From the NCBI GenBank assembly GCA_026874595.1, contig CM049311.1, positions 34,513,176 through 34,577,175 on the forward strand: a DNA stretch of 64,000 nt. Direction: 5' to 3'. The DNA is from Sipunculus nudus (taxonomy: Eukaryota; Annelida; Sipuncula; Golfingiida; Sipunculidae). This document shows, in pieces, positions 31,545 through 64,000 of the stretch. Positions within the stretch are counted from its first letter, which is position 1; each line of letters begins with the position of its first letter. The translations under genes and the position numbers were made by a program. The notes under the pieces are model-generated. The model was not told the origin of the DNA. It made no database searches and was given only the letters and a program-made list of their open reading frames with translations.

Positions 31545-34500
31545 CGACCATAGGTCGAACGCTTGCCGGAAATCGGAAGTGAAACACAGACGGTAGGGCA
31601 GAACATATTGTCGGTTTTCTATTAATAGAATGACTCTCAGGGACATTGCTGAGAATATGTGGCCCGTAGAATGACAAATGAACAGGCAAGCAGACAAAGC
31701 TGACAACAAAAGACGAACAGACAGACATACTGACTTTGTGAGACAAGATTGACACCAGATGACATAACCTGGTGATTGAGAAGATTCAAAGGAAGAAAAT
31801 GAGTTATAATTTATGTAATTTAGATTTATAGTTTTGGAGGTATGGGGAATTAATGATATACTTGGGAGGCTCGACTGTAGCGCCTTCTAGCAGACATATT
31901 CCGAAGACGACAAATGCGTTTCGTATTATTAGTGTATGACATCAGATGTCCCAGTTTCAAAAGGATTCCGTCAAAGCTGTGGCCTGTCGAATGCTATATG
32001 TAAGGCGTAAGAACCAGCAAGCAGGCACTTTGAGGGTAACGGACAAACAGATTGACACACTGACAAAGTGACAGAAGATTGAAACCATATGCCTTAATCA
32101 GGTTATGGAGAAGACTCAAAGGAAGAAAATAAGCTATAGCTTATGTAACTGAGGCTTTTGGTGTAGAGATATGGCCAATACAATGGTATGTGTGGGAGGG
32201 TCGTGTGCAGCGCCCACTAGTGGCCATATCAGGAAAATGAAAAATTAATTTCTAGAAATTAGTGTAAGACATAAGATGTAATAGTTTCAAAAGGATTCCG
32301 TCAAAACTGTGGTCTATAGAATGCTATATGTGAGACGCAAGAGCCAACAAGCAGGCGAATTTGAGGACAACTGACAAACAGACGAAAACACTGACAAAGT
32401 GACTCAAGATTGAGTCCAGATAACTACTCAAGGTTATGGAGAAGACTCAAAGGAAGAAAAAAAGCTACAGTCTATGTAACTAAGGTTTATAGTTTTGGAG
32501 ATATTGCCAAAGCATGATATGTTGGGAGAGGTTCGAGTTCAGCGCCCCCTAGCGGTCATATCCGGAAAATGAAAAATTGGTTTCGAGATATTAGTGTAAG
32601 ACTTAAGATGTAATAGTTTCAAAAGGATTCTTTCAAAACTGTGGCCTGTAGAATGCTATATGTGAGACGCAAGAGCAAGCAGGCGAATTTGAGGACAACT
32701 GACAAACAGACGGACACAATGACAAAGTGACACAACATTGAGACCAGATGACATTATCAGTTTATGGAGAAGACTCAGAGAGAAAAAATAAGCTATAGTT
32801 TATGTAATTGAGGCTTTGGTTTTTATAGATATGGCCAATGTAATGATATCTGTGTGAGGGTCGTGTGCAGCGCCCCCTAGCAGCCATATTCAAAAAATGA
32901 AAGAACAATTTCGAGATAATAGTGTAGGACTTATGATATGTCAGTTTCAAAAAGATTCCTGCAATAATGTGGCCTTTGGCGCAAGATGAATGAAATCTCG
33001 AAATATCTCTATTCACGAGATATTTTACGAGATACTGCAAGACTTGTAATAAAATCTTGTAGTACTAGTTGAATGCTACCTGATGCAAAAAACTAGATCA
33101 CTCTAGCTTTAAAACTGACAAAGTGAGAAAAATAAGATCCCTTATTTTCGAATATCATGACTTTTCCCCAAAAAATTGTAACCATGGTTACGGCAAATTT
33201 GAGTCAGCTACACACCAGATGACAGGCCTTGGAATGACGATTAAAATGAGCTATTGTGGAAGTAGATACGACTAATAGTCACAAAGATATGAAGAAAAAA
33301 ACGTTTTGAGAAGTTTTGACGACCTTGACCTTGACCTTTGACCTATTTTAACCAAAAACAATAGGGCACCTAGAAATTATGTTTTCAAACATCCCTGTAA
33401 GTTTGAAGGTTATTGTGGCAAAATTGTGGCCAGGAGAGTGGTGACAAACAAACTAGACGACCAGAGGTCGAGCGCTTGCCGGAAGTTGAAATGACAGACA
33501 GACGGACAGACAGAACATATTGTGGGTTTTCTATTATTTGAATGACCCTCAGCGTTTGCTGAGAAGTTGTGGCCTGTAAAATGACATATCAGACAAAGCA
33601 ACGAGGAAGCAGACAAAGCTGACAACAAAAGACGAACAGACAGACATACTGACACATCTGTGATAACAGATTACAGACAAAAGCGCCGAATGTGAAGAAG
33701 AGCAAAATTAGCGATAGTTTATGTAGGTAAGGTTTATAATTTTGGAGAGATAGCCAAAACATGATATGTTGGGGAGGTGAAAGTGCAGCGCCCCCTAGTG
33801 GCTATATCCGGAAAATGAAAAATCTGTTTTGAGATATTAGTGTAACACATAAGATGTACCAGTTTTAAAAGGATTCCTGAAAAAAAAAAACTGGCCTGTA
33901 GAATGCTATATATGAGACGCAAGAACCAGCAAGTAGGCGGATTTTAGGACAACTGACAAACAGACACACTGACAAAGTGACACAAGATTGAGACCAGATG
34001 ACATTACTAGGTCATGGAGAAGACTCAGGGAAAGAAAATAAGCCATAGTCTCTGTAATTGTGCCTTTGGGTTTTAGAGATATGGTCAATATAATGATATG
34101 TGTGTGAGGGTCATGTGCAGCGCCACCTAGCGGCCATATCCGGAAAATAGAAAAAATGTTTTGAGATATTTCTGTAAAACATAATATGCATCAGTTTTCA
34201 AATGCTTCTTTAAAAACTGTGGCCTGTAGAATGCTATATGTGAGACGCAAGAACCAGCAAGCAGGCAAATTTGAGGACAAGTGACAAACAGACGGACACA
34301 CTGACAAAGTGACACAAGATTGAGACCAGATGACATTATCAGTTTATGGAGAAGACTCAGAGGAAAAAAATAAGCTATAGTTTATGTAAATGAGGCTTTG
34401 GGTTTTAGAGATATGGCCAATGTAATGATATGTGTGTGAGGGTCGTTTGAAGCGCCCCCTAGGTGCCATATTCAAAAAATGAAAAAACAATTTCGAGATA

Positions 34501-37500
34501 CTAGTGTAGGACTTATGATGTGTCAGTTTCAAAAAGATTCCTGCAATAATGTGGCCTTTGGCGCAAGATGAATGAAATCTCGAAATATCTCTATTCACGA
34601 GATATTTTACGAGATACTGCAAGACTTTAATAAAATCTTGTAGTACTTGTTAAATGCTACCTGATGCAAAAAACTAGATCACTCTAGCTTTAAAACTGAC
34701 AAAGTTAGAAAAATAAGACCCCTTTATTTCGAATATCCTGACTTTTCCCCCAAAATTTGTAACCATGGTTACGGCAAATTTGAGTCAGCTACACACCAGA
34801 TGACAGGCCTTGGAACGACGATTAAAATGAGCTATTGTTGAAGTAGATACGACTGAAAGTCACACAGATATGGAGAAAAAACCGTTTTAAGAAGTTTTGA
34901 CGAACTTGACCTTGACCTTTCACCTATATTAACCAAAAACAATAGGGCACCTAGAAATTATGTTTTCGAACATCCCTGTAAGTTTCAAGGTTATTGTTGC
35001 AAAATTGTGGCCAGGAGAGTGGTGACAAACAAACAAGAACCAGCAAGAAGGCGAATTTGAGGACAACTGACAAACAGACGGACACACTGACAAAGTGACT
35101 CAAGATTGAGTCCAGATGACTACTCCAGATTATGGAGACGACTCAAAGGAAGAAAAAAGCTACAGTCTATGTAACTGAGGTTTATAGTTTTGGAGATATT
35201 GCCAAAGCATGATATGTTGGGAGAGGTTCGAGTTCAGCGCCCCCTAGCGGCCATATTCGGAAAATGAAAAATTGGTTTCGAGATATTATTGTAAGACTTA
35301 AGATGTAATAGTTTCAAAAGGATTCTTTCAAAACTGTGGCCTGTAGAATGCTATATGTGAGACGCAAGAGCAAGCAGGCGAATTTGAGGACAACTGACAA
35401 ACAGACGGACACAATGACAAAGTGACACAACATTGAGACCAGATGACATTATCAGTTTATGGAGAAGACTCAGAGGGAAAAAATAAGCTATAGTTTATGT
35501 AATTGAGGCTTTGGGTTTTAGAGATATGGCCAATGTAATGATATCTGTGTGAGGGTCGTGTGCAGCGCCCCCTAGGAGCCATATTCAAAAAATAAAAAAT
35601 TATTTCGAGATACTAGTGTAAGACTTATAATATGTCAGTTTCAAAAAGATTCCTGCAATAATGTGGCCTTTGGCGCAAGATGAATGAAATCTCGAAATAT
35701 CTCTATTCACGAGATATTTTACGAGATACTGCAAGACTTTAATAAAATCTTGTAGTACTAGTTGAATGCTACCTGATGCAAAAAACTAGATCACTCTAGC
35801 TTTAAAACTGACAAAGTTAGAAAAATAAGATCCCTTATTTTCGAATATCATGACTTTTCCCCAAAAAATTGTAACCATGGTTACGGCAAATTTGAGTCAG
35901 CTACACACCAGATGACAGGCCTTGGAATGACGATTAAAATGAGCTATTGTTGAAGTAGATACGACTAATATTCACAAAGATATGAAGAAAAAAACGTTTT
36001 GAGAAGTTTTGACGACCTTGACCTTGACCTTTGACCTATTTTAACCAAAAACAATAGGGCACCTAGAAATTATGTTTTCGAACATCCCTGTAAGTTTGAA
36101 GGTTATTGTGGCAAAATTGTGGCCAGGAGAGTGGTGACAAACAAACTAGACGACCATAGGTCGAACGCTTGCCGGAATTCGGAAGTGAAACACAGACGGA
36201 CAGACAGAACATATTGTCGGTTTTCTATTAATGGAATGACTCTCAGGGACATTGCTGAGAATATGTGGCCCGTAGAATGACATATGAGACAAAAGAACAG
36301 GCAAGCAGACAAAGCTGACAACAAAAGACGAACAGACAGACATACTGACTTTGTGAGACAAGATTGACACCAGATGACATAAGCTAGTTATTGAGAAGAT
36401 TCAAAGGAAGAAAATGAGTTATAATTTATGTAATTTAGATTTATAGTTTACGAGGTATGGCGAATTAATGATATACTTGGGAGGCTCGACTGTAGCGCCC
36501 TCTAGCAGACATATTCCGAAGACGACAAATGCGTTTCGTATTATTAGTGTATGACATGAGATGTCTCAGTTTCAAAAGGATTCCAAGCTGTGGCCTGTAG
36601 AATGCTATGTGTAAGGCGTAAGAACCAGCGAGCAGGCGACTTTGAGGATAATGGACAAACAGATGGACACACTGACAAAGTGACAGAAGATTGAAACCAG
36701 ATGCCTTAATCAGGTTATGGAGAAGACTCAAAGGAAGAAAATAAGCTATAGCTTATGTAACTGAGGCTTTGGGTGTAGAGATATGGCCAATACAATGGTA
36801 TGTGTGTGAGTCATGTGCAGCGCCCACTAGTGGCCATATCCGGAAAAATGAAAAATTTATTTCTAGATATTAGTGTAAGACATAAGATGTAATAGTTTCA
36901 AAAGGATTCCGTCAAAACTATGGCCTACAGAATGCTATATGTGAGACGCAAGAGCCAACAAGAAGGCGAATTTGAGGACAACTGACAAACAGACGAAAAC
37001 ACTGACAAAGTGACTCAAAATTGAGTCCAGAGGACTTCTCCAGGTTATGGAGAAGACTCAAAGGAAGAAAAAAGCTACAGTTTATGTAACTGAGGTTTAT
37101 AGTTTTGGAGATATTGCCAAAGCATGATATGTTGGGAGAGGTTCGAGTTCAGCGCCCCCTAGCGGCCATATCCGGAAAATGAAAAATTGGTTTCTAGATA
37201 TTAGTGTAAGACTTAAGATGTAATAGTTTCAAAAGGATTCTTTCAAAACTGTGGCCTGTAGAATGCTATATGTGAAACGCAAGAGCAAGCAGGCGAATTT
37301 GAGGACAACTGACAAACAGACAGACACACTGACAAAGTGTCACAAAATTGTGACCAGATGACTACACTAGGTTATGGAGAAGACTCAGAGGAAGAAAATA
37401 AGCTATAGTTTATGTAATTGAGGCTTATAATTTTGGAGATATGGCCAAAATATGATATGTTCGGGAGGTTCGCATCCAGCGCCCCCTAGCGGCCCCATTC

Positions 37501-39955
37501 AAAAAGTGAAAAATCGATTTCGAGATATTAGTGTAGGACTTATAATATGTCAGTTTCAAAAAGATTCCTGCAATAATGTGGCCTTTGGCGCAAGATGAAT
37601 GAAATCTCGAAATATCTCTATTCACGAGATATTTTACGAGATACTGCAAGACTTGTAATAAAATCTTATAGAACTAGTTGTGCTACCTGATGCAAAAAAT
37701 TAGATCACTCTAGCTTTAAAACTGACAAAGTTAGAAAAATAAGACCCCTTATTTTCGAATATTATGACTTTTCCCCCAAAACTTGTAACCATGGTTACGG
37801 CAAATTTGAGTCAGCTACACACCAGATGACAGGCCTTGGAATGACGATTAAAATGAGCTATTGTTGAAGTAGATACGGCTAATAGTCACAAAGATATGAA
37901 GAAAAAATCGTTTTGGGAAGATTTGACGACCTTGACCTTGACCTTTCACCTATTTTAACCAAAAACAATAGAGCACCTAGAAATTATGTTTCTCATCATC
38001 CCTGTAAGTTTCAAGGTTATTGTGGCAAAATTGTGGCCAGGAGAGTGGTGACAAACAAACTAGACGACCATAGGTCGAACGCTTGCCGGAATTCGGAAGT
38101 GAAACACAGACGGACAGAAAGAACATATTGTCGGTTTTCTATTAATGGAATGACTCTCAGGGACATTGCTGAGAATATGTGGCCCGTAGAATGACATATG
38201 AGACAAAAGAACAGGCAAGCAGACAAAGCTGACAACAAAAGACAAACATACAGACATACTGACTTTGTGAGACAAGATTGACACCAGATGACATAAGCTA
38301 GTTATTGAGAAGATTCAAAGGAAGAAAATGAGTTATAATTTATGTAATTTAGATTTATAGTTTACGAGGTATGGCGAATTAATTATATACTTGGGAGGCT
38401 CGACTGTAGCGCCCTCTAGCAGACATATTCCGAAGACGACAAATGCGTTTCGTATTATTAGTGTATAACATCAGATGTCTCAGTTTCAAAAGGATTCCGT
38501 CAAAGTTGTGGCCTGTAGAATGCTATATGTAAGGCGTAAGAACCAGGAAGCAGGCGACTTTGAGGATAACGGACAAACAGATGGACACACTGACAAAGTG
38601 ACAGAAGATTGAAACCAGATGCCTTAATCAGGTTATGGAGAAGACTCAAAGGAAGAAAATAAGCTATAGCTTATGTAACTGAGGCTTTGGGTGTAGAGAT
38701 ATGGCCAATACAATGGTATGTGTGTTAGAGTCATGTACAGCGCCCACTAGTGGCCATATCCGGAAAATGAAAAATTCATTTCTAGATATTAGTGTAAGAC
38801 ATAAGATGTAATAGTTTCAAAAGGATTCCGTCAAAACTGTGGCCTACAGAATGCTATATGTGAGACGCAAGAACCAACAAGCAGGCGAATTTGAGGACAA
38901 CTGACAAACAGACGAAAACACTGACAAAGTGACCCAAAATTGAGTCCAGATGACTTCTCCAGGTTATGGAGAAGACTCAAAGGAAGAAAAAAGCTACAGT
39001 TTATGTAACTGAGGTTTATAGTTTTGGAGATATTGCCAAAGCATGATATGTTGGGAGAGGTTCGAGTTCAGCGCCCCCTAGCGGCCATATCCGGAAAATG
39101 AAAAATTGGTTTCGAGATTTTCGTGTAAGACTTAAGATGTAATAGTTTCAAAAGGATTCTTTCAAAACTGTGGCCTGTAGAATGCTATATGTGAGACGCA
39201 AGAGCAAGCAGGCGAATTTGAGGACAACTGACAAACAGACGGACACAATGACAAAGTGACACAAGATTGAGACCAGATGACATTATCAGTTTATGGAGAA
39301 GAATCATAGGGAAAATAAGCTATAGTTTATGTAATTGAGGCCTATAATTTTGGAGATATTTCCAAAACATGATATGTTGGAGAGGTTTGCACCCAGCGCC
39401 CCCTAGCGGCCGAATCAAAAAAATGAAAAATTGATTTCGAGATAATAGTGTAGGACTTAAAATATGCCAGTTTCAAAAAGATTCCTGCAAAACTGTGGCC
39501 TCCAGGGCAAGATTACTGAAATCTCGAAATATCTCGTTTGACGAGATATTATACGAGATATTGCGAGACTCTTAATAGAATCTTGAAGTACTAGGTGAAT
39601 GCTACCTGAAGCAAAAAACTAGACCTCTGTAGCTTTAAAACTGACAAATTTAGAAAAATATCAGCACTTTTCCCCAAAAATGCGTTACCATGGTTACCGA
39701 GTCAGTTATTGAGTCAGCTACACACCAATAGACAGGCCTTGGAATGACGATTAAAATGAGCTATTGTTGAAGTAGCTACGACTATTAGTCACAAAGATAT
39801 GAAGAAAAAAACGTTTTGAGAAGTTTTGACGACCTTGACCTTTGACCTATTTTAACCAAAAACAATAGGGCATCTAGAAATTATGTTTTCGAACATCCCT
39901 GTAAGTTTCAAGGTTATTGTGGCAAAATTGTGGCCAGGAGAGTGGTGACAAACAA
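31545..39955 (+). repeat. Satellite-like array: about 330 bp monomers in about 1.9 kb higher-order units
   Basis: Monomers share, in order, a CTCF-like CAGCGCCCCCTAGCGGCCAT, GAGATATTAGTGTAAGAC, TTTCAAAAGGATTC, a CTGTGGCCTGTAGAATGC string, CAACTGACAAACAGACGG, and GGAGAAGACTCA. Every few monomers a longer terminal unit adds an ATCTCG/CGAGAT palindrome pair, GTAACCATGGTTAC, TGACCTTGACCTTTGACC, and a GACGACC..GGTCG hairpin. Units at 36145-38058 and 38058-39955 repeat at 1914 bp; 31545-33450 is a third, and 33450-36130 a variant. All are in one orientation. Open frames here are repeat by-products. Confidence 0.85.
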
Positions 39956-40065
39956 ACAGACAGACAAACAGACATACGCAACTGAGTAATATGCTTGCCG
40001 AAATCTTTGATTCCGGCAAGCAACAAACAGACAGACAGACAGACAGACTAGACGACCTGAGGTCG
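39955..40065 (+). repeat. GACA tetranucleotide tract with CTTGCCGGAA hairpin
   Basis: ACAAACAGACAGAC runs flank a near-palindrome, GCTTGCCGAAATC, three bases, GATTCCGGCAAGC. The same module is reiterated at 51100-51250, 52440-52706 and 57064-57255. Confidence 0.8.
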
Positions 40066-40229
40066 AACGCTTGCCGGAAGTTACCGGAAATAAGACAGCG
40101 AAATAGATGGACAGTTACTAGGCAGACAGACAGGAAACATTTGGATCTGATCAGATGAAAAACCTCTATCATGGGGAAAACAGTAGCACATATGAATAAG
40201 GTCTTGCTGATTTTCAAAAGTCAAAGAGG

Positions 40230-40285
40230 AGTAGACAGAGAGACAGACAGAGAGACAGACAGACAGACGGATAGAGAGACATTAA
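40230..40285. repeat. AGAC microsatellite
   Basis: AGACAGAGAGACAGAC-type repeats over about 50 bp. The following 40300-42300 has no gene I can support. Two diverged copies of a GGGACGGGCTCTTT string with related sequence after it lie at 41018 and 41852, and a C run at 42099-42112. Confidence 0.8.
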
Positions 40286-42309
40286 TAGTGTTATTATTAG
40301 TAGCCATCCTATACAGGATAATCCATTTTTGGACAGAAATAAAAATAATGGAAGTCCAACTGAATCCTTGGCAGTTCTATTCTTGAGTGCTGGAAATAAG
40401 AAAAGCACTGAAAAAGAAACTTGAAGAGTTGAACGTCCAGAATGCCGAAATGCAAGCGAAGCCGCGTTCGTGTTAGACAGAGACCCGACCTCTGGGTAAG
40501 GGAGACGTGACCTTTCATTCCTGGACAAGCTAGGTGCCTATCTAGACCATCCTTTAAGGTCGCGGCTTAAATAAGGGCTGTCCTTGAAGAAAAAAGGTTA
40601 GCCGGTCAGCCTGCGTCCGGGAATTATAAAATTCCAAGAAGTCCTGCCCATCACGGATTAACTGTAATGTCCCCTTGGTGTAAGTTATCTGTTATGTGAA
40701 ATTTAATATATGTTAAAAAATTGGAATCTTTGGTTAAAAAAGGAAAGCGGTGATTTTTAAGGAGTCTGAAGTGGTAAGTAATAAGATAAAAAATTGTGAG
40801 GCCCTAGTTCCGTGGTGGGTTTGGACTTTATATATAAAAATATATTCTGGCATGAGAGAGGGGTGCTGTCAAATTTTTTGGCGCCTGCCGCACGTTTGTG
40901 AATAAAACGGTACACTTGACACGGGCGCGATGGAAATTTAAGAGGAAAGGTAGTAATCCCAAGCCGTAGTTGAGTTGTTTTGACCCCAGAGTTTGCAGTC
41001 CTAGCTGAAATAGGCATGGGACGGGCTCTTTTTTAAACCCGGAACGCCAGAAGAGGCTGGAGATTGAATGAAGGATTGGGCCATTTTTTTATCCGAAAAA
41101 CCTGGGAATTGACAATTAAAAAAAATGACAGGGACCTTCTCAGCCCGTTCCAGCTCAGGGAACGGTCATTAGAATATTGTCGGGAATCCATATTATCCTA
41201 CCTGTGGGCTGGGACGGTCCAGAAAACCGCAATTATACGGGTATCCATAAAATTGTATGTCAATTTTTGTCATTAATAAATACATATACATCTATAACGC
41301 GGACAGCTGGAGAATTCGCGGAGAATTCATCATGATGATTTTATTAAATGTGAGCAAAGGTACAATTTATTTTTTGTATCATATTTCCTTAAGAACCTGT
41401 AAATTTGATATCCTGCATGGTTTTGTTACGGTTTGCACAGTAAACTGTTGAAAAAATATATAGTGTTTAGCGTTTTCGTCTGATGTAAGATCGGTAGTCA
41501 ATGTTAGCTGGTGATCCAGATTGGTGTTAGTGGCAGTCCCACATTGTTTGCGCTGGTTATTATTTCGGTAATTTAACAGTGAATAAATGTCTTTAGAGTA
41601 ATATAGTGGTAGATTTTAAATGATTTTAACGTGTAATTAAAAGTATCATTGCATATAAAATCTCTCCGTGAATTGTCCGGGAATTCCCCGCGTTTACATA
41701 TAAACGCATTTACCAGCCGTATGAAAGTTTTTGTCCGCTTTCATAATGTTTGCCGTGCCCCGGACACAAATTTAAGACGAGATGGACTAAACCCCGCCCC
41801 GGTAGGATTGTTTGGACTCTGAAGAAACGAACCCTCGCAGGAAATGCGGTGGGACGGGCTCTTTCTTATTCGATGAACGCTCGAAAAGAGTGGTGAATGA
41901 TTGAAAAAATAGGGTCATTTTCACTGTCATCTTGAATAACGGAATAAATATTTTTTTTTTTTAATTCATAGAGACTTGGTCATCCAATAACAGCAGAAAA
42001 AAATGTTCTTTCAAATGTTGTGTGGTGTCCATTGTAGCCTCGCCCACCGCCGGGATCCAAAGAGAAGCCTGGATTTTACTGCAAAAAAAACACAAACACC
42101 CCCCCCCCCCCCAAAAAAAAACAAAAACAAAAAAACTTTTATTCATTTTATTTTTATTTTTTATTACTGGATGTAATTGAATATCATGGTTTATTTATAA
42201 AAAAATAAGATGCAATTCATTGAATGAAAAGAGATTTTATTAAATATATTGATACATGTTTATAACAGTTTGATATTTGATTTTTTTTTAATTTATAGAC
42301 AGACAATTT

Positions 42310-52533: not shown

Positions 52534-52576
<43 letters not shown>

Positions 52577-52628: not shown

Positions 52629-52659
<31 letters not shown>

Positions 52660-53900: not shown

Positions 53901-54480
53901 TAGACGACCAGAGGTCGAACGCTTGCCGGAAATGGCCGGAAATAAGATAGCGAAACAAACAGGACAAACTGTCGGTTTCTATCAATTGAATGACTTTCAG
54001 AGCGATTGCTGGAAAGTTTTGCCTGTTGAATGACATATATCACACAAAAGATCATGAAAGCAGACATAGCTCACAACAGACAGATATACTGACACACCTG
54101 AGATAACAGACTACCAGAAAAAAGTTGGGAACGTAAAGAGAAGCAAAATGAGCTATAGTTTTAGTAGGTAGAGTTTATAGTGTCGGAGGTATGGCCAATA
54201 TATGGTAGAAGCCATATCCCAAACATTAAAAATTTCTTTTGAGACCTTAATGTAAGGAATAAGATGTTGTTCCAGTTCCAAAAGGATTCCCGCAAAACTG
54301 TGTCCTGAAAATTGCTAACTGGAAGAAGCAAGTTCCAGCAAGCAGGCGAAATTTAGGATCACTGACAAACAGACAGACACACTCAAAAAATGACACAAGA
54401 ATAAGACCAGATGACCTACTCAGATTATCGAGTAGATTCAGAGGAAGAAAATAAATCATAGTTTTCAATTGGCTACACTG
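53900..54480 (+). repeat. Partial module resembling the start of unit X
   Basis: Follows the order of 45905-46500 (GACTTTCAGAGCGATTGCTG, CACACCTGAGATAACAGACT, GAAAATTGCTAACTGGAAGA) but more diverged and lacking the CTCF-like core, which is deleted near 54210. Confidence 0.65.
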
Positions 54481-55110
54481 CTTTTTTTAAAGTTTTATTT
54501 ACCCAATCCCTCCTTATAAAACTGGCAGAAACCTACCATAGAATAATTCTTGTAAAGTTTAAAACAATCAGCTAAACAGTTTCATCATAAAACAGAGTAT
54601 AAGCTGGAGAGTCTAAAATTACATTTTCCCTTGTAAAAAACAGATCAATATAAGTGGCGCCATCAATACCTGAATTTCAGATATGACATATGAGACAAAC
54701 ATAGGTATAAAATTTGGTAATGACAGCTCTAGCCGTTTCTGAGATTTTAATTTTAGTTTGCTTTTTTGGACAGATGACTAAGTTCAACCTCCTGTTCAAT
54801 CTCCGAACTGAAACCATTCGAACAAACTTGAGATAGATTGTTCAAGAGTTCATTTCTTAGAAATATTGGACAATTTGGCTGGACTGTTTCGCAGAAGAAC
54901 ATTTTTTAAGCTTTTGTAGCTTTTTCCCTATAAAATCTCAGTAAATGCAGAAAGCCAAAAAATAAACAAAATACGATAGAGCTTTTCAGATGACTGTTTA
55001 TTTACAAAATAAAATTGGTAGTGCTAGTTCCCGCCGTTTTTGAGATAGCTATGGTTAACCTACAGACGACGGACGACGCTGCACCATAGCATAAGCTCAC
55101 AGATTCGCTA
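54480..55110. repeat. Unrelated insert with ACGACGGACGACG tail
   Basis: Breaks module order. It has two short TAGCCGTTTCTGAGAT and CCGCCGTTTTTGAGAT segments about 300 bp apart and ends CAGACGACGGACGACG, then ATAGCATAAGCTCAC. Module sequence resumes at about 55115. Probably a third tandem-core family in this window ending in a GACG-type tail. Confidence 0.45.
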
Positions 55111-55873
55111 ATAATTTGTTTCGAGATATAACTGTAAGACATAAGATTTAATAGTTTAAAAAAGATTCTTTCAAAACTGTGGCCTGTAGAATTCTATTAG
55201 TGAGACGAAAGAACAAAGAAGCAGGCGAATTTGAGGACAACTGACAAACAAACAGACATACTGACAAAGGGACACAAGATGAAGACAAGATGACTTAACC
55301 AGGTTATGGGGAAGACTCAGAGCAAGAAAAAAAAGGTATGGTTTATTAAATTGAGGTTTCTAGTTTTGGAGATATGGCCAAATAATGATATATTGGGGAT
55401 GTTCGACTGCAGCGCCCTCTAGTGGACATATCCTGAAGACGACATGTGCGTTTCGTGATGTTAGTGAATGGCATGAGATGTAATCGTTTCAAAAGGATTC
55501 CTCCGAATATCTGGCTTGTTGATTGCTATATGTGAGATGCAAGAACCAGCAAGTAGGCGAATTTGAAGATAACTGACAAACAGACAGACATACTGAAAAA
55601 AGTAACACAAGATGTACACCAGATGACGTTACCATATTTTGCAGAAGGCCAAGAGAAAGAAAATAAGTTACTGTTTGTGTAACATAGGTTTACTCTTACG
55701 GAAATATGTTTGGATGTTTGATTTGTTTGGATGTGTCTAGTGCAACGCCCCCTAGCAGCCATATCCGGAAAATGAAACATAAGTTTTGAGATATTAGTGT
55801 AAAACATAAGATGAAGGAACAAACATACGCGGGTGAACAACATACTTGCGAAAATCGATGATTTCCGGCAAGC
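55110..55873 (+). repeat. Two 330 bp monomers, variant with GCCCTCTAGTGG
   Basis: Same order as the 31-40 kb array. Closely matched by 62045-62790, which shares the junction to ATGAAGGAACAAACATAC that leads into unit Y. Confidence 0.75.
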
Positions 55874-57064
55874 AATAAAGTATGGACTGTGCCTCCAACA
55901 TGTATGATGATAGACAGGGCCCGGAGAGGCCGTCACGCACCGCTGCACACGCCGGCCGCCCCCGTAAGGACCCTGCCGCCACTTGCGGCGACGGCGAGTG
56001 TCTTCGTGATATGGCGAAAAACGGCGCGAGATTTGACGAGACTAACAATGTGACCCCTGAATGTGACTGCGAGTGTCAGCCGCTATCCAGCGCTGCAAAC
56101 CATGTGTCTGTAGCGTGAAAAATGACAGAATTATAGGCATTTCTTTGAATGGTCACGTGTTCTCGTTTCACGAGAAACGGTGCGAGATATGACGAGACTT
56201 GCGATTGAACGGCTTAGAACTAGAGGGATGCTGTCTAACGCCAAAGACCAGACCTTTCTATCGCAAATATCAACAGAGATAGAAGCTGGAAAACTCCGAA
56301 TTTTCAGATTGTCAAGTTTTACCCCAAAATTTGGTAACCATGGTAACGGCAGCACAAAGCAACATGTGCGAAGAGATAAGCCAATGTTCCTAGTTTCAGA
56401 TACGACCAAAAAAAATGGTGTCACGTTTAATATTTTTGAGATATTGCAGAAAAATGACATGTTACAGTGTTTCATGTACCACGCCCCCTGGTGGCTATTT
56501 CCAAAAAATGAAAAACTGATTTCGAGATATTTATAAATAACACAAAATATATCAATTTCAAAGCCATTGTTAAAAAAAAATGCAACCTGTAGGTCATATT
56601 TAATGAAATCTCGAAGACTCTCGTTTGACGAGAAATGGTGCGAGATTTGGCGAGACTTTCAGTTTTATCATGTCAAGCTGCCTATAAGGTACATAATGAC
56701 CAAAACCAGACGTCTGTAGCTTAAAAATTGTCAAAGTTACAAAAAATGGTCGTGTTATTTCCAATTTCCATGATTTTTGCCCAAAAAATGTAACCATGGT
56801 AACGGCAAATTTAAGTAAGCTACATGTCAAAAGAAAGGCCAGGTGATGACGAAAAAAATGAGCTATTGCAGAAGTGGATAAGCCTATTTATGGCGAAGTT
56901 ATAGTGCAAAAACCGTTAACCATACCTGTCGTGACCTTGACCCTTGACCTTGGAGCAATGTTGACCAAAAACAATAGGGCACCTAGAAATTACGTTTTCG
57001 AACATCCCTGTAAGTTTCAAGGTTATTGTGGCAAAATTGTGGCCAGGAGAGTGGTGACAAACAA
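55873..57064 (+). repeat. Unit Y, copy 3
   Basis: Nearly identical to copies 1 and 2, ending in GTGGTGACAAACAAAC. Confidence 0.9.
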
Positions 57065-57068
57065 ACAA

Positions 57069-57119
<51 letters not shown>

Positions 57120-57172
57120 TACGCAACTGACCAATATGCTTGCGGAAATCGAAGATTTCCGGCAAGCAACAA

Positions 57173-57203
<31 letters not shown>

Positions 57204-57255
57204 TACGCAACTGACCAATATGCTTGCGGAAATCGAAGATTTCCGGCAAGCAACT
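57064..57255 (+). repeat. GACA microsatellite with two hairpin modules
   Basis: (GACA)n of about 45 bp, hairpin near 57138-57167, shorter (GACA)n, second hairpin near 57225-57254, then CTAGACGACC. Confidence 0.9.
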
Positions 57256-60003
57256 AGACGACCAGAGGTCGAGTGCTTGCCGGAAGTTGAAATGACAGAC
57301 AGACGGACAGACAGAACATATTGTGGGTTTTCTATTATTTGAATGACCCTCAGCGTTTGCTGAGATGTTGTGGCCTGTAAAATGACATATCAGACAAAGC
57401 AACGAAGAAGCAGACAGAGCTGACAACAAAAGACGAACAGACAGACATACTGACACATCTGTGATAACAGATTACAGACAAAAGCGCCGAAGGTGAAGAA
57501 GAGCAAAATTAGCGATAGTTTATATAGGTAAGGTTTATAATTTTGGAGAGATAGCCAAAACATGATATGTTGGGGAGGTGAAAGTGCAGCGCCCCCTAGT
57601 GGCTATATCCGGAAAATGAAAAATCTGTTTTGAGATATTAGTGTAACACATAAGATGTACCAGTTTTAAAAGGATTCCTGAAAAAAAACCTGTGGCCTGT
57701 AGAATGCTATATATGAGACGCAAGAACCAGCAAGTAGGCGGATTTGAGGACAACTGACAAACAGACACACTGACAAAGTGACACAAGATTGAGACCAGAT
57801 GACATTACTAGGTCATGGAGAAGACTCAGGGAAAGAAAATAAGCCATAGTTTCTGTAATTGTGCCTTTGGGTTTTAGAGATATGGTCAATATATAATATA
57901 TGTGTGAGGGTCATGTGCAGCGCCACCTAGCGGCCATATCCGGAAAATAGAAAAAATGTTTTGAGATATTTCTGTAAAACATATTATGCATCAGTTTTCA
58001 AATGCTTCTTTAAAAACTGTGGCCTGTAGAATGCTATATGTGAGACACAAGAACCAGCAAGCAGGCAAATTTGAGGACAACTGACAAACAGACGGACACA
58101 CTGACAAAGTGACACAAGATTGAGACCAGATGACATTATCAGTTTATGGAGAAGACTCAGAGGAAAAAAATAAGCTATAGTTTATGTAAATGAGGCTTTG
58201 GGTTTTAGAGATATGGCCAATGTAATGATATGTGTGTGAGGGTCGTTTGCAGCGCCCCCTAGCAGCCATATTCAAAAAATGAAAAAACAATTTCGAGATA
58301 CTAGTGTAGGACTTATGATATGTCAGTTTCAAAAAGATTCCTGCAATAATGTGGCCTTTGGCGCAAGATGAATGAAATCTCGAAATATCTCTATTCACGG
58401 GATATTTTACGAGATACTGCAAGACTTGTAATAAAATCTTGTAGTACTAGTTAAATGCTACCTGATGCGAAAAACTAGATCACTCTAGCTTTAAAACTGA
58501 CAAAGTTAGAAAAATAAGACCCCTTATTTTCGAATATCCTGAATTTTCCCCCAAAATTTGTAACCATGATTACGGCAAATTTGAGTCAGCTACACACCAG
58601 ATGACAGGCCTTGGAACGACGATTAAAATGAGCTATTGTTGAAGTAGATACGACTGAAAGTCACACAGATATGGAGAAAAAACTGTTTTAAGAAGTTTTG
58701 ACGACCTTGACCTTAATAGTCACAAAGATATGAAGAAAAAATCGTTTTGGGAAGATTTGACGACCTTGACCTTGACCTTTCACCTATATTAACCAAAAAC
58801 AATAGGGCACCTAGAAATTTTCTTTTTCATCATCCCTGTAAGTTTCAAGGTTATTGTGGCAAAATTGTGGCCAGGAGTGTGGTGACAAACAAACAAGAAC
58901 CAGCAAGAAGGCGAATTTGAGGACAACTGACAAACAGACGAAAACACTGACAAAGTGACTCAAGATTGAGTCCAGATGACTACTCCAGATTATGGAGACG
59001 ACTCAAAGGAAGAAAAAAGCTACAGTCTATGTAACTGAGGTTTATAGTTTTGGAGATATTGCCAAAGCATGATATGTTGGGAGAGGTTCGAGTTCAGCGC
59101 CCCCAAGCGGCCATATCCGGAAAATGAAAAATTGGTTTCGAGATATTAGTGTAAGACTTAAGATGTAATAGTTTCAAAAGGATTCTTTCAAAACCGTGGC
59201 CTGTAGAATGCTATATGTGAGACGCAAGAGCAAGCAGGCGAATTTGAGGACAACTGACAAACAGACGGACACAATGACAAAGTGACACAACATTGAGACC
59301 AGATGACATTATCAGTTTATGGAGAAGACATAGAGGGAAAAAATAAGCTATAGTTTATGTAATTGAGGCTTTGGGTTTTAGAGATATGGCCAATATAATG
59401 ATATCTGTGTGAGGGTCGTGTGCAGCGCCCCCTAGGAGCCATATTCAAAAAATGAAAAAACAATTTCGAGATACTAGTGTAGGACTTATGATATGTCAGT
59501 TTCAAAAAGATTCCTGCAATAATGTGGCCTTTGGCGCAAGATGAATGAAATCTCGAAATATCTCTATTCACGAGATATTTTACGAGATACTGCAAGACTT
59601 GTTATAAAATCTTGTAGTACTAGTTGAATGCTACCTGATGCAAAAAACTCGATCACTCTAGCTTTAAAACTGACAAAGTTAGAAAAATAAGATCCCTTAT
59701 TTTCGAATATCATGACTTTTCCCCAAAAATTTGTAACCATGGTTACGGCAAATTTGAGTCAGCTACACACCAGATGACAGGCCTTGGAATGACGATTAAA
59801 ATGAGCTATTGTTGAAGTAGATACGACTAATAGTCACAAAGATATGAAGAAAAAAACGTTTTGAGAAGTTTTGACGACCTTGACCTTGACCTTTAACCTA
59901 TTTTAACCAAAAACAATAGGGCACCTAAAAATTATGTTTTCGAACATCCCTGTAAGTTTCAAGGTTATTGTGGCAAAATTGTGGCCAGGAGAGTGGTGAC
60001 AAA
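57255..60003 (+). repeat. Segmental copy of 33445-36135
   Basis: About 2.7 kb collinear and nearly identical to the earlier segment, including its unusual CCTGAAAAAAAA site and the junction GACAAACAAACAAGAACCAG at 58885. An extra 70 bp around 58700-58770 duplicates the TGACGACCTTGACCTT region. Confidence 0.88.
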
Positions 60004-62045
60004 CAAACTAGACGACCATAGGTCGAGAGCTTGCCGGACTTAAATGACAGACAGATGGACAAACAGGACAAACTGACGGTTTTCTATCAATTGAATGACT
60101 TTTAAAGTGATTGCTTGAACGTTTGGCCTGTTGAACGACATATATCACATAAAAGAACATGAAATCAGACATAGCTCAAAACAGACAAATATACTGACAC
60201 ACCTGAGATAACAGACTACAAGTGAAGGTAGAGTTTATAATGTCGGAGATATGGCCAAAAAATGATATGGTGTGGAGGCTCTACCGCAGCATCCCCTAGC
60301 GGCCATAATCCGAAATTAAAAAATTTCTTTTGAGATATTATTGTAAGAAATGTTCCAAAATGTATATATTATTGTAAGAGATGTTTCAATTCCAAAAGGA
60401 TTCCCTCAAAACTGTGGCCTGAAGATTGCTAACTGTAAGACGCAAGATCCAGCAATCAGGCGAAAATGAGGATCACTGACAAACAGACAGACATACTGAA
60501 AAACTGTGGCCTGAAGATTGCTAACTGTAAAACGCAAGATCCAGCAAGCAGGTGAAATAGAGGATCACTGACAAACAGACAGACATACTGAAAAAGTGAC
60601 ACAAGAATAAGACCAGATGACTAACTCAGATTATGGAGAAGATTCAAAGGAAGACAATAAGTCATAGTGTTTGTAATTGAAGTTTATAGTTTTGTAGATA
60701 TGGCAAAGAAATATATATAGGGGAGAGGCGAGTGCAACGCCCCCTATTGGCAATATCCAGAAAATGAATAATCTGTTTCGAGATATTACTGTAAGATGTA
60801 AGATGTAATAGTTTAACAAGTGACCCATGGGTCATGACGCTCAGCTGCCAAGCATGACCTGCCACATCATGGGCTGAGATTCACAACTTCCAGTCACATT
60901 TTGAAGAATCAATTTGCCAATATGTTGAAATTTTCTACGACAACAGAAATATACATCACCTATGTCTGGTTAAAACACAGTGACTTGATGGTCTAAGGAA
61001 AAATGAATGATTGTTAAGCTATCAGTAACTATTCCCATAGCTTGCTTGATACCTGTCAGTCTCAAAAGAAACACCAAAAAGGGCAAATATAAGATCAAAA
61101 TATATAGCAAAAATCAAGGAAATCCATGCAAGAATTATTGAGAAACGGGTGCTTATAAATATGAAGTTTGAATCAAATTGTGTGATGCATAGATATGGCA
61201 TATGTGAAAGACTGAAGGTTTGGGTTGAACAGTTTCACTTGCAAAAAGTTCACAACCATTTAGAATAATTAAGTAGTGTGTCCTTGACCTTTGACCTTTT
61301 GAACTCGACATCGATAGGCTTCTTTCCCTATTGGTAGGTAAGCCATATATGACAAATGGAAGGTATAGATTGAAAAGTTTCCTGAAAATGACTCCACACA
61401 AAAAGTGGGTGCAGTGAACTTCACCTTTGACCTCAAATTCAACAGTTCTTTTCCCCTGTTGGCAGAGAAGCGATATCAGTGCTGGGAAGTTTGGAATGAA
61501 ATGTCTAGCTTGAAATGTTTTCACAACGTTTTAAAAAAATTGGATCCTGTGACCCTGATCTTTGATCTTGTGACCTAAAAATCTATAGGATTCTTCTCCC
61601 TCTTAGTAGGTGAAATATATGTAAAAGTTCAAAGAATTGGGATGAAAGATTTGGCTTAAAATGCATCCACAGGCATTAAATAAAGGGACTCCTGTGACCT
61701 TGACCTTTGACCTGTTGACTTCAAAATAATGATGGTTCTTCCCCTGTTAGTAGATGAGCTGTATGTGAAAGATGGAAGGTTTTGGATGAAAATTTTAGCT
61801 AAAAGAATTATTTCTGGGGGGTGCATACACACCCTGTAACTTCGAGAATATAGGTCAGTGACCTAATTTCAGGTTTGCAAGGAGATCATTTTAGAACCTC
61901 TAAGACTACATAGGGTTCATGACCCTAGCCCGTACAGTTACGATTTGTGCCATGCTAACAGACGGACGGCCGGTCAGCAGGATGGACAGATGGAAGGACG
62001 ACGGACAAAGACCCATCGCTATAGCCCAGCATGACTGAAAGTCAG
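60003..62045 (+). repeat. Segmental unit X, copy 2 (contains element C at 60816-62005)
   Basis: Nearly identical to 45905-47940, including the tandem 142 bp core and the GACGGACGGCCGG tail of the inserted element. Here the interrupted module resumes after the element (CCTTTCAAAACGGTGGCCTG near 62063), which it does not in copy 1. Confidence 0.85.
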
Positions 62046-62790
62046 CTGAGCTAAAAATGATCCTTTCAAAACGGTGGCCTGTAGAATGCTATCAGTGAAA
62101 CTCAAGAACCAAAAAGCCTGCGAATTTGAGGACAACTGACAAACAAACAGACAAACTTACAAAGGGACACAAGATGGAGACAAGATGACTTAATCAGGTT
62201 ATGGAGAAGACTCAGAGGAAGAAAATAAGCTATAGTTTATGTAATTGAGGCTTATAATTTTGGAGATATGGCCAAATAATGATATACTGGATATGTTCGA
62301 CTGCAGCGCCCTCTAGTGGACATATCCTGAAGACGACAAATGCGTTTCGTGATATTAGTGTATGACATAAGATGTAATAGTTTCAAAAGGATTCGTCCAC
62401 ATATCTGACTTGTTGATTGCTATATCTAAAGTGCAAAAACTAGCAAGCAGGCGAATATGAGGATAAATGAAAAACAGACAGACATACTGACAAAGTGACA
62501 CTAGATGGAGACCAGGTGACTTGACCATGTTTTGAAGAAGACCAAGAGAAAGAAAATAAGCTATAGTTTGTGTAATATAGGTTTACTCTTACGGAAATAT
62601 GTTCAAAAACTGATTTTTTTAGAAGGGTCAAGTGCAGCGCCCCCTAGCAGCCATATCCGGAAAATGAAAAATAATTTTTGAGATATTAGTATAATACATA
62701 AGATGAAGGAACAAACATACACGGGTGAGCAACATGCTTTCGAAAATCGAAGATTTCCGTCAAGTAATACAAGTAATAAAGTCTGGACTG
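62045..62790 (+). repeat. 330 bp monomers matching 55110-55873
   Basis: CTCF-like cores at about 62303 and 62633, then ATAAGATGAAGGAACAAACA and a hairpin at about 62736-62765. Confidence 0.75.
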
Positions 62791-62912
62791 TGCCTCCAAC
62801 ATGTATGATAATAGATAGGGCCCGGAAAGGCCGACACGCACCGCTGCACACGCCGGCTGCCCACCGTAAGGACCCTGTCGCCACTTGCGGCAATTGCACG
62901 TGTCTTCGTGAT
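62790..62912 (+). repeat. Truncated head of unit Y
   Basis: Only about 120 bp of the GC-rich head is present. It breaks off after GTGTCTTCGTGATATG into unit Z sequence. Confidence 0.75.
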
Positions 62913-64000
62913 ATGTATCAGTTTCAAAAGGATGCCTGCATATCTGTGGCCTATAGGGCATGTCACCGTGAAATCGCGAAATCTCATTCGACGAGAAACG
63001 GTGCGAGATTTTGCAAGATTTTTGGTTGGATCACCGAGAACTCACCAAGGGCTACAAGATGCGAAAATTTTGACCTCTCTAGCATAAAAACTGACAGAGT
63101 TAGAAGCTGAAAACTGCATATTTTCAAAATTCAAAGGTTTTACCCCAAAAATAGAGAAATCTGGCAATAGCGCACTTTGGCACCTATGCGCAAAAATAAG
63201 CCCATGGACCCTAGTTTAAGGTGCTGTGATGGAAATGGCCCAATGTTTAATAGTTCTGGAGGTATAGCACCAAAACAAATTTTCATGTTTTTTCATCTGC
63301 AACGCCCCCTGGCGGCCATTTCCAAAATCTGAAAAACCCGTTTCGAGATATTCTTATGTTACATAAAATATCTCAGAATCAGTAAAATTGCTGCAAATTT
63401 GAAAAATATCACGAAATTCCATGATTTCTCCCCAAAATTGCGTAACCATGGTAACAGCGAAATGAGGCAATTTGGCAGTGTTGGAAGTGGCCATGCAGTG
63501 GCAAATAAAACGGGCTACAGATTAGGTGCCTACGGCTATTTTTGACGAAGGTATGAAGAAAAAACCGTTTTTGAGCTTTTTGGCGACCCTGACCTTGACC
63601 CTTGACCGATCATGACCAAAAACAATAGGCTCCGAGAAGAACCGATTATACACTCTATCTATAAGTTTCAGGACGATTGGTGCAAAATTGTGGCCTGTAG
63701 AGCGGGGACATACAGACAAACAAACAAACGGAACTGATCAACATACTTGTCGAAATCTCTGATTCCGGCAAGCAATAAACTATAACGCGACAGAAATGGC
63801 AAACCGGCCCGCAAAGAGTGCCTGTGGTCACTTATTTTATACGGCGAACGCTATAATTTTTGCAGTCACGGGAAAGCGTGTCTGTCTTTCATACTAAAAC
63901 GCGTGCATGCATGCGTGATGGCATATGTATTTGTGCATGCGGGTTTTAATTTTTACAAAGTTGCTAAAATTTGTGGGGACCGTGTATGATTAAACAAAAG
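62913..64000 (+). repeat. Unit Z, copy 4, spanning a unit junction
   Basis: Corresponds to 48996-49207 followed without a break by 47934-48808, so it crosses the boundary between consecutive 1274 bp units. It runs off the right edge. Confidence 0.9.

What the first reader, a model, noticed from the sequence alone, without database searches (positions are those of the whole stretch)
31876..63320. About 40 same-strand CTCF-like cores carried by the repeat modules
Each monomer has a core such as GCGCCCCCTAGTGGCTAT or CACGCCCCCTGGTGGCTA. Read on the other strand, the 33785 and 57589 copies (CCACTAGGGGGCGC) fit the CTCF core CCASYAGRKGGCRS fully, and many others differ by one or two bases. All copies I counted point the same way. 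Families that have otherwise diverged (330 bp monomers, units X, Y, Z) keep this string best. CTCF is conserved in bilaterians and rodent SINEs are known to spread CTCF sites; a one-directional cluster in an invertebrate satellite could be an insulator or loop-anchor array.
Basis: partly seen in the sequence, partly recalled or inferred. Interest (0 to 1): 0.8.

Follow-up and report, generated by a model that had tools for sequence, protein, structure and literature searches.

The report
Transposon-borne one-way CTCF site bank
In an unnamed invertebrate genome, about forty copies of the DNA landing site for the genome-folding protein CTCF all face the same way inside a 34-kb block built from jumping-gene repeats, and the same kind of repeat seems to carry thousands of such sites across the genome, so a mobile element may be laying down one-way barriers that shape chromosome folding.

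Summary
In 31.9-63.3 kb, 32 sites reach CTCF-matrix p<=1e-6, all minus strand; shuffles average under 0.1. Core-blind, 39 of 41 monomers keep the core, but it is only among the best-conserved parts (88% vs 76%, rank 9-15 of 325 windows). Two exact core strings occur 3969 and 4090 times genome-wide against about 5 and 0.4 expected. The block is no plain satellite: it has the ends, hairpin, GTCT microsatellite and tandem repeats of non-autonomous Helentrons (HINEs); related repeats lie beside both RepHel genes extended. The genome encodes a CTCF orthologue with fingers 3-5 identical to human at base-reading positions and a conserved YDF motif. Unrelated CTCF-type sites are also enriched, with a TAGT module where vertebrate M2 lies. 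Most likely, rolling-circle transposons disperse one-way CTCF banks that could stall cohesin arriving from the low-coordinate side; occupancy and looping are inferred. Against: 0 of 39 array sites has TAGT, site-breaking copies are common, no selection signature was found, and the autonomous Helentrons' own ends were not identified.

The parts
31540..64000 (-). Array of HINE-type modules (330-bp monomers plus X, Y, Z modules); continues to about L065:1262 beyond the window
   Evidence: Self-similarity, boundaries and flank
31878..31896 (-). CTCF-like site, weak
   Evidence: 9.4 bits, p 3.5e-5
32208..32226 (-). CTCF-like site
   Evidence: 22.6 bits
32540..32558 (-). CTCF-like site
   Evidence: 25.0 bits
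32868..32886 (-). CTCF-like site
   Evidence: 17.4 bits
33786..33804 (-). CTCF-like site, full consensus
   Evidence: 27.1 bits, p 1.7e-10; exact consensus
34118..34136 (-). CTCF-like site
   Evidence: 25.1 bits
34450..34468 (-). CTCF-like site
   Evidence: 13.9 bits
35235..35253 (-). CTCF-like site
   Evidence: 26.4 bits
35563..35581 (-). CTCF-like site
   Evidence: 15.2 bits
36493..36511 (-). CTCF-like site
   Evidence: 13.3 bits
36818..36836 (-). CTCF-like site
   Evidence: 22.6 bits
37150..37168 (-). CTCF-like site
   Evidence: 26.4 bits
37477..37495 (-). CTCF-like site
   Evidence: 24.5 bits
38407..38425 (-). CTCF-like site
   Evidence: 13.3 bits
38738..38756 (-). CTCF-like site
   Evidence: 22.6 bits
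39069..39087 (-). CTCF-like site
   Evidence: 26.4 bits
39394..39412 (-). CTCF-like site
   Evidence: 26.4 bits
45311..45329 (-). CTCF-like site (X module)
   Evidence: 22.1 bits
46189..46207 (-). CTCF-like site
   Evidence: 17.7 bits
48110..48128 (-). CTCF-like site (Y module)
   Evidence: 23.1 bits
48928..48946 (-). CTCF-like site (Z module)
   Evidence: 23.1 bits
49384..49402 (-). CTCF-like site (Y module)
   Evidence: 23.1 bits
50202..50220 (-). CTCF-like site (Z module)
   Evidence: 23.1 bits
50658..50676 (-). CTCF-like site (Y module)
   Evidence: 23.1 bits
51855..51873 (-). CTCF-like site (X module)
   Evidence: 22.1 bits
53315..53333 (-). CTCF-like site (X module)
   Evidence: 22.1 bits
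55410..55428 (-). CTCF-like site, full consensus
   Evidence: 25.2 bits
55743..55761 (-). CTCF-like site
   Evidence: 13.0 bits
56479..56497 (-). CTCF-like site (X module)
   Evidence: 22.1 bits
57587..57605 (-). CTCF-like site, full consensus
   Evidence: 27.1 bits
57918..57936 (-). CTCF-like site
   Evidence: 25.1 bits
58250..58268 (-). CTCF-like site
   Evidence: 17.4 bits
59095..59113 (-). CTCF-like site
   Evidence: 20.9 bits
59423..59441 (-). CTCF-like site
   Evidence: 15.2 bits
60287..60305 (-). CTCF-like site
   Evidence: 17.7 bits
60735..60753 (-). CTCF-like site
   Evidence: 18.5 bits
62304..62322 (-). CTCF-like site, full consensus
   Evidence: 25.2 bits
62635..62653 (-). CTCF-like site
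   Evidence: 17.4 bits
63300..63318 (-). CTCF-like site (Y module)
   Evidence: 23.1 bits
31540..31571 (-). Outer element end: CTAG, CGACC-loop-GGTCG palindrome, subterminal inverted repeat, against a run of 13 A
   Evidence: Sequence printed; the same end in L001 and L020
33453..33470 (-). Internal element end (CTAG + palindrome)
53900..55875 (-). Unit bounded by both kinds of end: CTAG + palindrome at 53900, hairpin end GGCAAGCAA at 55867-55875
60008..60025 (-). Internal element end (CTAG + palindrome, one mismatch)
57221..57271 (-). Exact junction of two elements: hairpin end (GGCAAGCAA) directly followed by the next element's CTAG end at 57254
   Evidence: hairpin fold -13.3 kcal/mol, z -5.65
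51217..51252 (-). Hairpin end (subTIR plus its inverted repeat); GACA/GTCT tracts lie near such hairpins elsewhere in the array

Best explanation
The block is a head-to-tail array of non-autonomous Helentron-type (rolling-circle) transposon modules, HINEs. Their internal repeats of about 330 bp, and related X, Y and Z modules, each carry one CTCF core site, mostly strong. Because the modules join head to tail, all sites face the same way, so the array is a bank of 39 same-direction sites (38 at p<=1e-5). Mobilisation by Helentron enzymes and tandem growth have scattered such banks through the genome. Mechanism: the species' CTCF binds the cores through fingers 3-7 (3-5 are unchanged from human at base-reading positions); with the motif on the minus strand its N-terminus, carrying a conserved YDF cohesin-contact motif, faces lower coordinates; cohesin extruding from that side is repeatedly stalled, so the array acts as a one-way boundary or right-hand loop anchor, as Dxz4 does on the mouse X. 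Shown here: sites, polarity, array and element anatomy, Helentron genes with related repeats nearby, CTCF orthologue, genome-wide motif enrichment. Inferred: mobilisation by those Helentrons, binding in cells, cohesin stalling, any benefit to host or element.
For: Sites and polarity: (32 minus, 0 plus at p<=1e-6; shuffles under 0.1). Core-blind presence: 39 of 41. Genome-wide exact cores: CGCCCCCTRGTGGC 3969 (reversed control 2; Markov expectation 1.3-6.8), CGCCCCCTAGCGGC 4090 (control 0; expectation 0.2-0.4). In C1:0-50 Mb, 162 of 165 neighbouring pairs within 5 kb share a strand and 30 of 32 multi-site clusters are one-strand (three exact strings, the damaged CAG kind included). Element anatomy: shared CTAG end in L001, L020 and at the window array's edge where similarity stops; palindrome; subterminal inverted repeats; hairpin; GTCT microsatellite; an exact head-to-tail junction; one unit with both ends, as HINEs are described (PMC7492417, PMC4067079, passages). 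Helentron: 143 Helitron_like_N matches. Both loci extended (open frames of 2235 and 2229 codons) carry array-type repeats downstream, whereas about 184 kb of other sequence has 187 bp; domains in the C4 frame: Helitron_like_N, PIF1, Exo_endo_phos. CTCF: best PDB match 7w1m CTCF, E 1.6e-113, YDF aligned; fingers 3-5 identical at -1, 2, 3, 6. Unrelated sites: CCAGYAGRKGGCRS 1270 against 75-274 expected, reversed control 32 against 27-60; TAGT module in 12 of 61.
Against: No binding or contact data. 0 of 39 array sites has the TAGT module; the M2-slot median score is reached by 21% of random sequences. TAGCAG in place of TAGCGG, which ruins a near-invariant C of the CTCF core, has 912 exact copies; in C1:0-50 Mb it outnumbers CTAGTGGC 43 to 16 (listings), so nothing shows purging of broken sites. 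The core is only modestly better conserved than the rest. In the repeats beside the two autonomous Helentrons no core of 14 bits or more was seen, only the C4 ones match the monomer profile, and the HINE ends were not found in the 13 kb read around each gene, whose direction is opposite to the conventional HINE one. No dispersed element was read from end to end. The 3' palindrome folds no better than shuffles. Outside fingers 3-5 the CTCF fingers keep only 1-3 of 4 base-reading residues.
Confidence: 0.55

Rival explanations
1. Bindable but idle cargo: the repeats carry CTCF-matching cores inherited from the founding element, but in cells the arrays are methylated, heterochromatic or simply neutral, and they neither bind CTCF nor affect folding.
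For: Broken CAG cores are common (912) and outnumber CTAGTGGC in C1:0-50 Mb, 43 to 16; in the window the two are equal, 7 and 7 of 39. Modest conservation. No TAGT module in 39 sites. CAG cores and Helitron_like_N matches are both dense at C1:63-72 Mb in the listings, possibly a repeat-rich region.
Against: Strong sites are the majority of the exact cores counted (3969 + 4090 against 912). 39 of 41 window monomers keep the core, and all four X modules in the window keep CTGGTGG. Modules that are 62-73% alike to the 330-bp monomer keep the core.
Confidence: 0.33
2. The core is kept for the element's own needs (replication, transcription, or another zinc-finger protein of the host) and its fit to CTCF is secondary.
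For: The genome has very many C2H2 genes (366 matches). Other stretches of the monomer are as conserved as the core. The repeats seen beside autonomous Helentrons lack a strong core, so it is not required by every family member.
Against: The match covers the whole 19-position motif at p down to 1.7e-10, and the array's median score at the core's flanks is better than 97% of random sequences under a matrix from the species' own unrelated sites.
Confidence: 0.09
3. Ordinary structural satellite (centromeric or heterochromatic) in which same-strand motifs follow trivially from tandem duplication.
For: Tandem, same-strand by construction. Tandem duplication does explain the polarity.
Against: Dispersed copies with precise ends, HINE anatomy, and sites spread along the first 50 Mb of C1 in 66 clusters, 34 of them single sites. 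Tandem duplication explains neither the motif nor the dispersal.
Confidence: 0.03

Closest known systems
HINE / Helentron elements with satellite-like central repeats, e.g. Cg_HINE of the Pacific oyster (PMC7492417) and DINE-1 (PMC4067079); passages seen
   Same: Subterminal inverted repeats, an inverted repeat beside one of them, GTC-type microsatellite, tandem central repeats, palindrome at one end, T-rich flank, dispersal, Helentron (RepHel plus endonuclease) genes in the same genome.
   Different: Central repeats here carry a CTCF core. CTCF has 0 occurrences in the main text of PMC7492417, and no held paper has both Helentron and CTCF. Monomers are about 330 bp rather than mostly 140-180 bp, and the composite block is about 34 kb.
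Retrotransposon-spread CTCF sites: rodent B2, dog SINEC-Cf, opossum MIR (PMC3368268; passages seen)
   Same: Mobile repeats disperse many CTCF motifs. As in the dog and opossum elements of that paper, the repeats have M1 but not M2.
   Different: Here the carrier is a rolling-circle DNA transposon in an invertebrate and brings whole one-direction banks rather than single sites. Binding is not shown.
Dxz4/DXZ4 macrosatellite on the mammalian X (PMC5899087, PMC6985041; passages seen)
   Same: Many CTCF motifs in tandem repeats with a shared polarity (mouse).
   Different: Dxz4 is one locus with proven CTCF binding and orientation-dependent contacts. Here there are many dispersed banks on transposons and no binding data.
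CTCF-like motifs at TAD borders and loop anchors in cephalopods (PMC9023564, preprint PMC12407938; reviews PMC10658182, PMC10658181; passages seen)
   Same: CTCF-type motifs enriched in a spiralian genome.
   Different: There motif directionality was not established (PMC10658182); here it is explicit and array-wide, but without contact data. That this genome is spiralian is inference.

Membership tests
CTCF binding site | Match to the vertebrate core matrix well above shuffled sequence | tested here: met
   32 sites at p<=1e-6 against under 0.1 per strand in 200 shuffles (matrix recalled)
CTCF binding site | Fit to this species' own CTCF-type motif beside the core | tested here: met
   flank positions -3..-1 and +14..+16 score median 2.66 in 39 array sites (61 unrelated sites 1.41, random -1.41)
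CTCF binding site | Second module (M2) upstream | tested here: not met
   TAGT in 0 of 39; median 0.20, reached by 21% of random. M2 occurs in a quarter to a third of mammalian events (PMC3368268 passage), so it is not required
CTCF binding site | CTCF gene with conserved DNA-reading fingers | tested here: met
   fingers 3-5 identical at four positions; fingers 6 and 7 keep 1 and 2 of 4, the others 1-3 of 4
CTCF binding site | Occupancy by CTCF in cells | not testable with these tools
   No ChIP data
HINE (non-autonomous Helentron) | Subterminal inverted repeats at both ends, with an inverted repeat beside one | tested here: met
   GCTTGCCGGAA at one end and TTCCGGCAAGC at the other; hairpin z -5.65; both ends on one unit at 53900-55875
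HINE (non-autonomous Helentron) | Palindrome near the 3' end | tested here: inconclusive
   CGACC-TCT-GGTCG just before CTAG; fold -4.5 kcal/mol, 24 of 200 shuffles as good
HINE (non-autonomous Helentron) | Microsatellite and central tandem repeats | tested here: met
   GACA/GTCT tracts and 327-332 bp periods
HINE (non-autonomous Helentron) | Insertion at T-rich / TT sites, shown by empty sites | tested here: inconclusive
   CTAG is followed by TT on the element strand at the three outer ends read (L001, L020, window edge); no empty site was examined
HINE (non-autonomous Helentron) | Autonomous Helentron partner sharing ends | tested here: inconclusive
   RepHel-endonuclease gene present and related repeats beside 2 of 2 extended genes, of 143 matches; shared ends not found in the 13 kb read around each
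Dxz4-like directional CTCF bank | Tandem CTCF motifs of one polarity | tested here: met
Dxz4-like directional CTCF bank | Orientation-dependent long-range contacts | not testable with these tools
   No Hi-C
tRNA-derived SINE | tRNA-like head with A and B boxes | tested here: not met
   ARAGORN found 0 tRNAs in the window; no Rfam match in the array; only a B-box-like string GGTTCGAGTTC beside some cores. No A-box scan was made

The most novel reading that the evidence does not exclude
A rolling-circle transposon family has seeded an invertebrate genome with hundreds of single-polarity CTCF banks: 30 one-strand clusters of two or more exact cores (damaged CAG cores counted) in the first 50 Mb of one chromosome, 9 of them with 6-33 cores at a 20-kb joining distance; about 900 multi-site clusters genome-wide if that stretch is typical. 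These work as one-way cohesin barriers, so that chromosome folding in this lineage is largely laid out by Helentrons, each bank a Dxz4-like ratchet.
Probability: 0.25. Interest if true: 0.92.

Novelty: new variant of a known kind. Interest (0 to 1): 0.72.

Why it matters
Whether directional CTCF-cohesin loop extrusion works in spiralians is open: a 2023 review (PMC10658182, passages) says the lack of motif directionality kept the squid study from inferring the mechanism. If the inferred affiliation is right, this genome offers natural test objects: banks with many same-way sites in either orientation, plus related arrays with broken cores as controls. If bound, they would extend transposon-driven CTCF dispersal from mammalian retrotransposons to a rolling-circle DNA transposon in an invertebrate and show how one-way boundaries can arise by tandem transposition. 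If unbound, they show how a genome tolerates thousands of strong CTCF motifs.

Tried and rejected
tRNA/SINE origin: a B-box-like string precedes some cores, but there are no tRNAs and no Rfam match in the array; rejected. CENP-B box: considered by eye against the recalled consensus, spacing does not fit; not tested further. Chance: rejected. Reversed-pattern control: 1270 against 32 looked like 40-fold enrichment of unrelated sites, but the reversed pattern contains an obligatory CpG; I replaced it by Markov expectations, giving 4.6- to 17-fold. Selection test by CpG decay: no purging of the CTCF-breaking allele. Search of viral contigs for a longer core string: 0 matches. Shared ends on autonomous Helentrons: not found. 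Never answered by the busy server: flank searches for genome-wide core-blind sampling, the count of CCACYAGATGGCRS, the count of the element end, and the count of CGCCCCCTAGTGGC alone.
Full report
What was claimed.

The observation. On the minus strand the region holds 4 exact, 17 one-mismatch and 14 two-mismatch copies of CCASYAGRKGGCRS; the plus strand has six two-mismatch copies of one other string. With the 19-position CTCF matrix (recalled from memory) 32 minus-strand sites reach p<=1e-6 and 38 reach p<=1e-5, none on the plus strand; 200 dinucleotide shuffles average under 0.1 per strand at 1e-6, and the rest of the window has none. The best sites (33786, 57587) have p 1.7e-10. Spacing inside the tandem blocks is 325-333 bp. 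The array stops about 1.3 kb beyond the window; its last cores are at L065:118 and 574, and the next 19.4 kb have one site above 13 bits (19.4 bits, L065:8466), outside array-type repeats.

Is the core specially kept? To avoid choosing copies by their core I built a monomer profile from the 39 window copies with the core masked. It finds 41 window monomers with both flanks, after dropping one spacer unit that has a GACCTTGACC string in place of the core. Of the 41, 39 carry the core, one has it deleted, one has an insertion. Core identity to the majority base is 0.88 against a mean of 0.76 over 325 windows, rank 9; with redundancy filters (18 and 13 copies) rank 12 and 15. Over 131 monomers from all loci then held, partly chosen by their core, the ranks are 14, 19 and 18. 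So the core is among the best-kept stretches, not clearly the best. An earlier alignment of copies chosen by the core ranked it 1st, 1st and 4th of 331; that one is biased.

Genome-wide. Exact CGCCCCCTRGTGGC occurs 3969 times (reversed control 2), CGCCCCCTAGCGGC 4090 times (control 0), and the CTCF-damaging CGCCCCCTAGCAGC 912 times (control 2). Markov models of order 1-4 from 159 kb expect 1.3-6.8, 0.2-0.4 and 0.5-1.6. Of 45 exact CGCCCCCTRGTGGC occurrences in the first 28 loci (some counted twice because L003-L008 overlap), 43 match the window's repeats with the core masked, two of them (L014, L015) only at 64-69% identity; 2, both in L018, do not match. From the listings for C1:0-50 Mb (231 sites: 90 TRGTGG, 98 TAGCGG, 43 TAGCAG), 162 of 165 neighbouring pairs within 5 kb share a strand; there are 66 clusters, 34 single and 32 multi-site, and 30 of the 32 are one-strand; the largest has 32 sites (33 over 43 kb at a 10-kb joining distance), all on one strand. 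The lists show only the first 100 places per pattern, so other chromosomes were not sampled.

What carries the sites. Array and dispersed copies share an exact end, CTAGACGACCAGAGGTCGAACGCTTGCCGGAA (few mismatches), where similarity to other copies stops, in L001 and L020 and at the window array's left edge (31540); on the element strand CTAG is followed by TT in these three. The other end is a hairpin, GCTTGCCGGAAATC-loop-GATTTCCGCAAGC (z -5.65), with GTCT microsatellite tracts on its inner side. The two ends share an inverted repeat, GCTTGCCGGAA/TTCCGGCAAGC. The unit 53900-55875 has both ends, and at 57254 a hairpin end joins the next CTAG end with nothing between. I did not read any dispersed element from end to end. 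This is the anatomy described for HINEs, non-autonomous Helentrons, in oyster (PMC7492417, passages) and in flies and mites (PMC4067079, passages). The genome has 143 Helitron_like_N matches. I extended two loci with long intact frames (2235 and 2229 codons); the C4 frame has Helitron_like_N, PIF1 and Exo_endo_phos domains, which together mark a Helentron. Both loci carry array-type repeats in the same orientation, starting about 4.1 kb (C11) and 3.4 kb (C4) after the frame and running to the end of the piece read, while five other sets (about 184 kb, among them six Helitron_like_N loci read over about 3.5 kb each) have 187 bp in all. Against full proof of partnership: the HINE ends were not found in the 13 kb read around each gene, only the C4 repeats match the monomer profile, the repeats there show no core of 14 bits or more, and the genes run opposite to the conventional HINE orientation.

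Does this species use such sites? One gene (C11:67037653) has 57% identity to the recalled human CTCF fingers, next best 42%. Its best solved relative is human CTCF (7w1m, E 1.6e-113), and the alignment includes MSVYDF, aligned to human VSVYDF, a segment known to contact cohesin (recalled). Fingers 3, 4 and 5 are identical to human at positions -1, 2, 3, 6; fingers 6 and 7 keep 1 and 2 of 4; fingers 1, 2, 8, 9, 10, 11 keep 1, 2, 1, 2, 3, 1. Independent of the repeats, CCAGYAGRKGGCRS, absent from the window, occurs 1270 times against 75-274 expected, while its reversed control occurs 32 times against 27-60 expected. I read 70 of the 100 listed places, all on C1 (two near-neighbours and the last 28 left out); 9 were dropped as related to others, leaving 61. 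They show a second module, TAGT, at -15 to -12: 12 of 61 exact, against a mean of 0.31 and a maximum of 2 at other offsets. Its centre lies about 20 bp from the core's centre, where Schmidt et al. place the second CTCF motif M2 (PMC3368268, passages; which side is recalled). One of the 61, L112, looks by eye like a diverged HINE monomer. None of the 30 longer loci L029-L058 contains array-type repeats. So the genome very probably uses CTCF with the usual core plus a lineage version of M2.

Do the repeat sites fit that species motif? Their core flanks do (median 2.66; only 2.8% of random sequences reach it). The M2 slot does not: TAGT is in 0 of 39, though all 39 have its last T, and the median score 0.20 is reached by 21% of random sequences. 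Dog and opossum CTCF-carrying repeats likewise have M1 only (PMC3368268).

Mechanism. Shown: the sites, their polarity, the transposon-like carrier, the CTCF gene and genome-wide motif enrichment. Inferred: binding, and stalling of cohesin. The motif orientation presents the CTCF N-terminus to cohesin coming from inside the domain (PMC7645679, abstract and passages). With minus-strand motifs the domain interior should be at lower coordinates (orientation rule recalled), so this array would be a right-hand anchor. The same paper notes that invertebrate N-termini are divergent and that in Drosophila CTCF sites show no orientation bias at borders, so the rule may not carry over to every invertebrate. 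The closest working analogue is Dxz4, whose bank of same-way motifs sets the direction of contacts (PMC5899087, PMC6985041, passages).

What speaks against function. In C1:0-50 Mb the CTCF-breaking CTAGCAGC outnumbers CTAGTGGC 43 to 16 (listings), although both can arise from the CpG of CTAGCGGC; in the window they are equal, 7 and 7 of 39. Copies are not independent events, but nothing shows purging. Conservation is modest. There are no occupancy or contact data. I put 0.55 on the full explanation and 0.33 on idle cargo.

Novelty. HINEs with satellite-like repeats, transposon-spread CTCF sites and one-way CTCF banks are each known. Their combination was not found in the held library: no paper has both Helentron and CTCF. 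Five have CTCF, Helitron and mollusc (listing only); one of them, PMC4378273, was also listed, and none was read. The other searches were made, of which only the listed rows were seen. Verdict: new variant of a known kind.

Noticed in passing
31500-64000: GACCTTGACC (nuclear-receptor-like half-site repeat, recalled) occurs 18 times on the plus strand of the array and its complement 0 times (4 on plus, 0 complement in the rest of the window). In spacer modules it sits where the CTCF core would be.
   Followed up: partly
loci L029-L058 and L080-L119: Unrelated CTCF-type sites share a TAGT module 12-15 bases upstream (12 of 61), apparently this lineage's version of the vertebrate M2 motif.
   Followed up: yes
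25536-27704 (-): Long open frame of 722 codons resembling TRPV5/6 channels, with ankyrin repeats, about 4 kb left of the array.
   Followed up: partly
18514-18617 (+): Vault RNA match just above Rfam's gathering score (36.1 against 34 bits).
   Followed up: no
11351-13264 and 42314-44114: Two other tandem arrays: about 330-400 bp units with AGATGGCGCCACC, and 365-bp units of opposite GC skew inside the HINE block.
   Followed up: no
L017:2306-2307: Two HINE arrays meet head to head, giving divergent CTCF-type cores at one point.
   Followed up: no
L018:847 and 5701: A different sequence, in two copies 4,854 bp apart, also carries an exact CGCCCCCTGGTGGC.
   Followed up: no
L069 (C1:45029000-45036999): Monomers here vary the core at several CTCF-tolerant positions (GG, GT, AT), and two sites reach 28.5 bits, more than any in the window.
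   Followed up: partly
C1:63-72 Mb: Helitron_like_N matches (13 of the 15 listed on C1) and CAG-type cores are both dense here in the listings, possibly a repeat-rich or pericentromeric region.
   Followed up: no
C16:38-61 Mb, C7, C9: Very many C2H2 zinc-finger arrays (366 matches to the CTCF finger query; in the listed part many are on C16).
   Followed up: no
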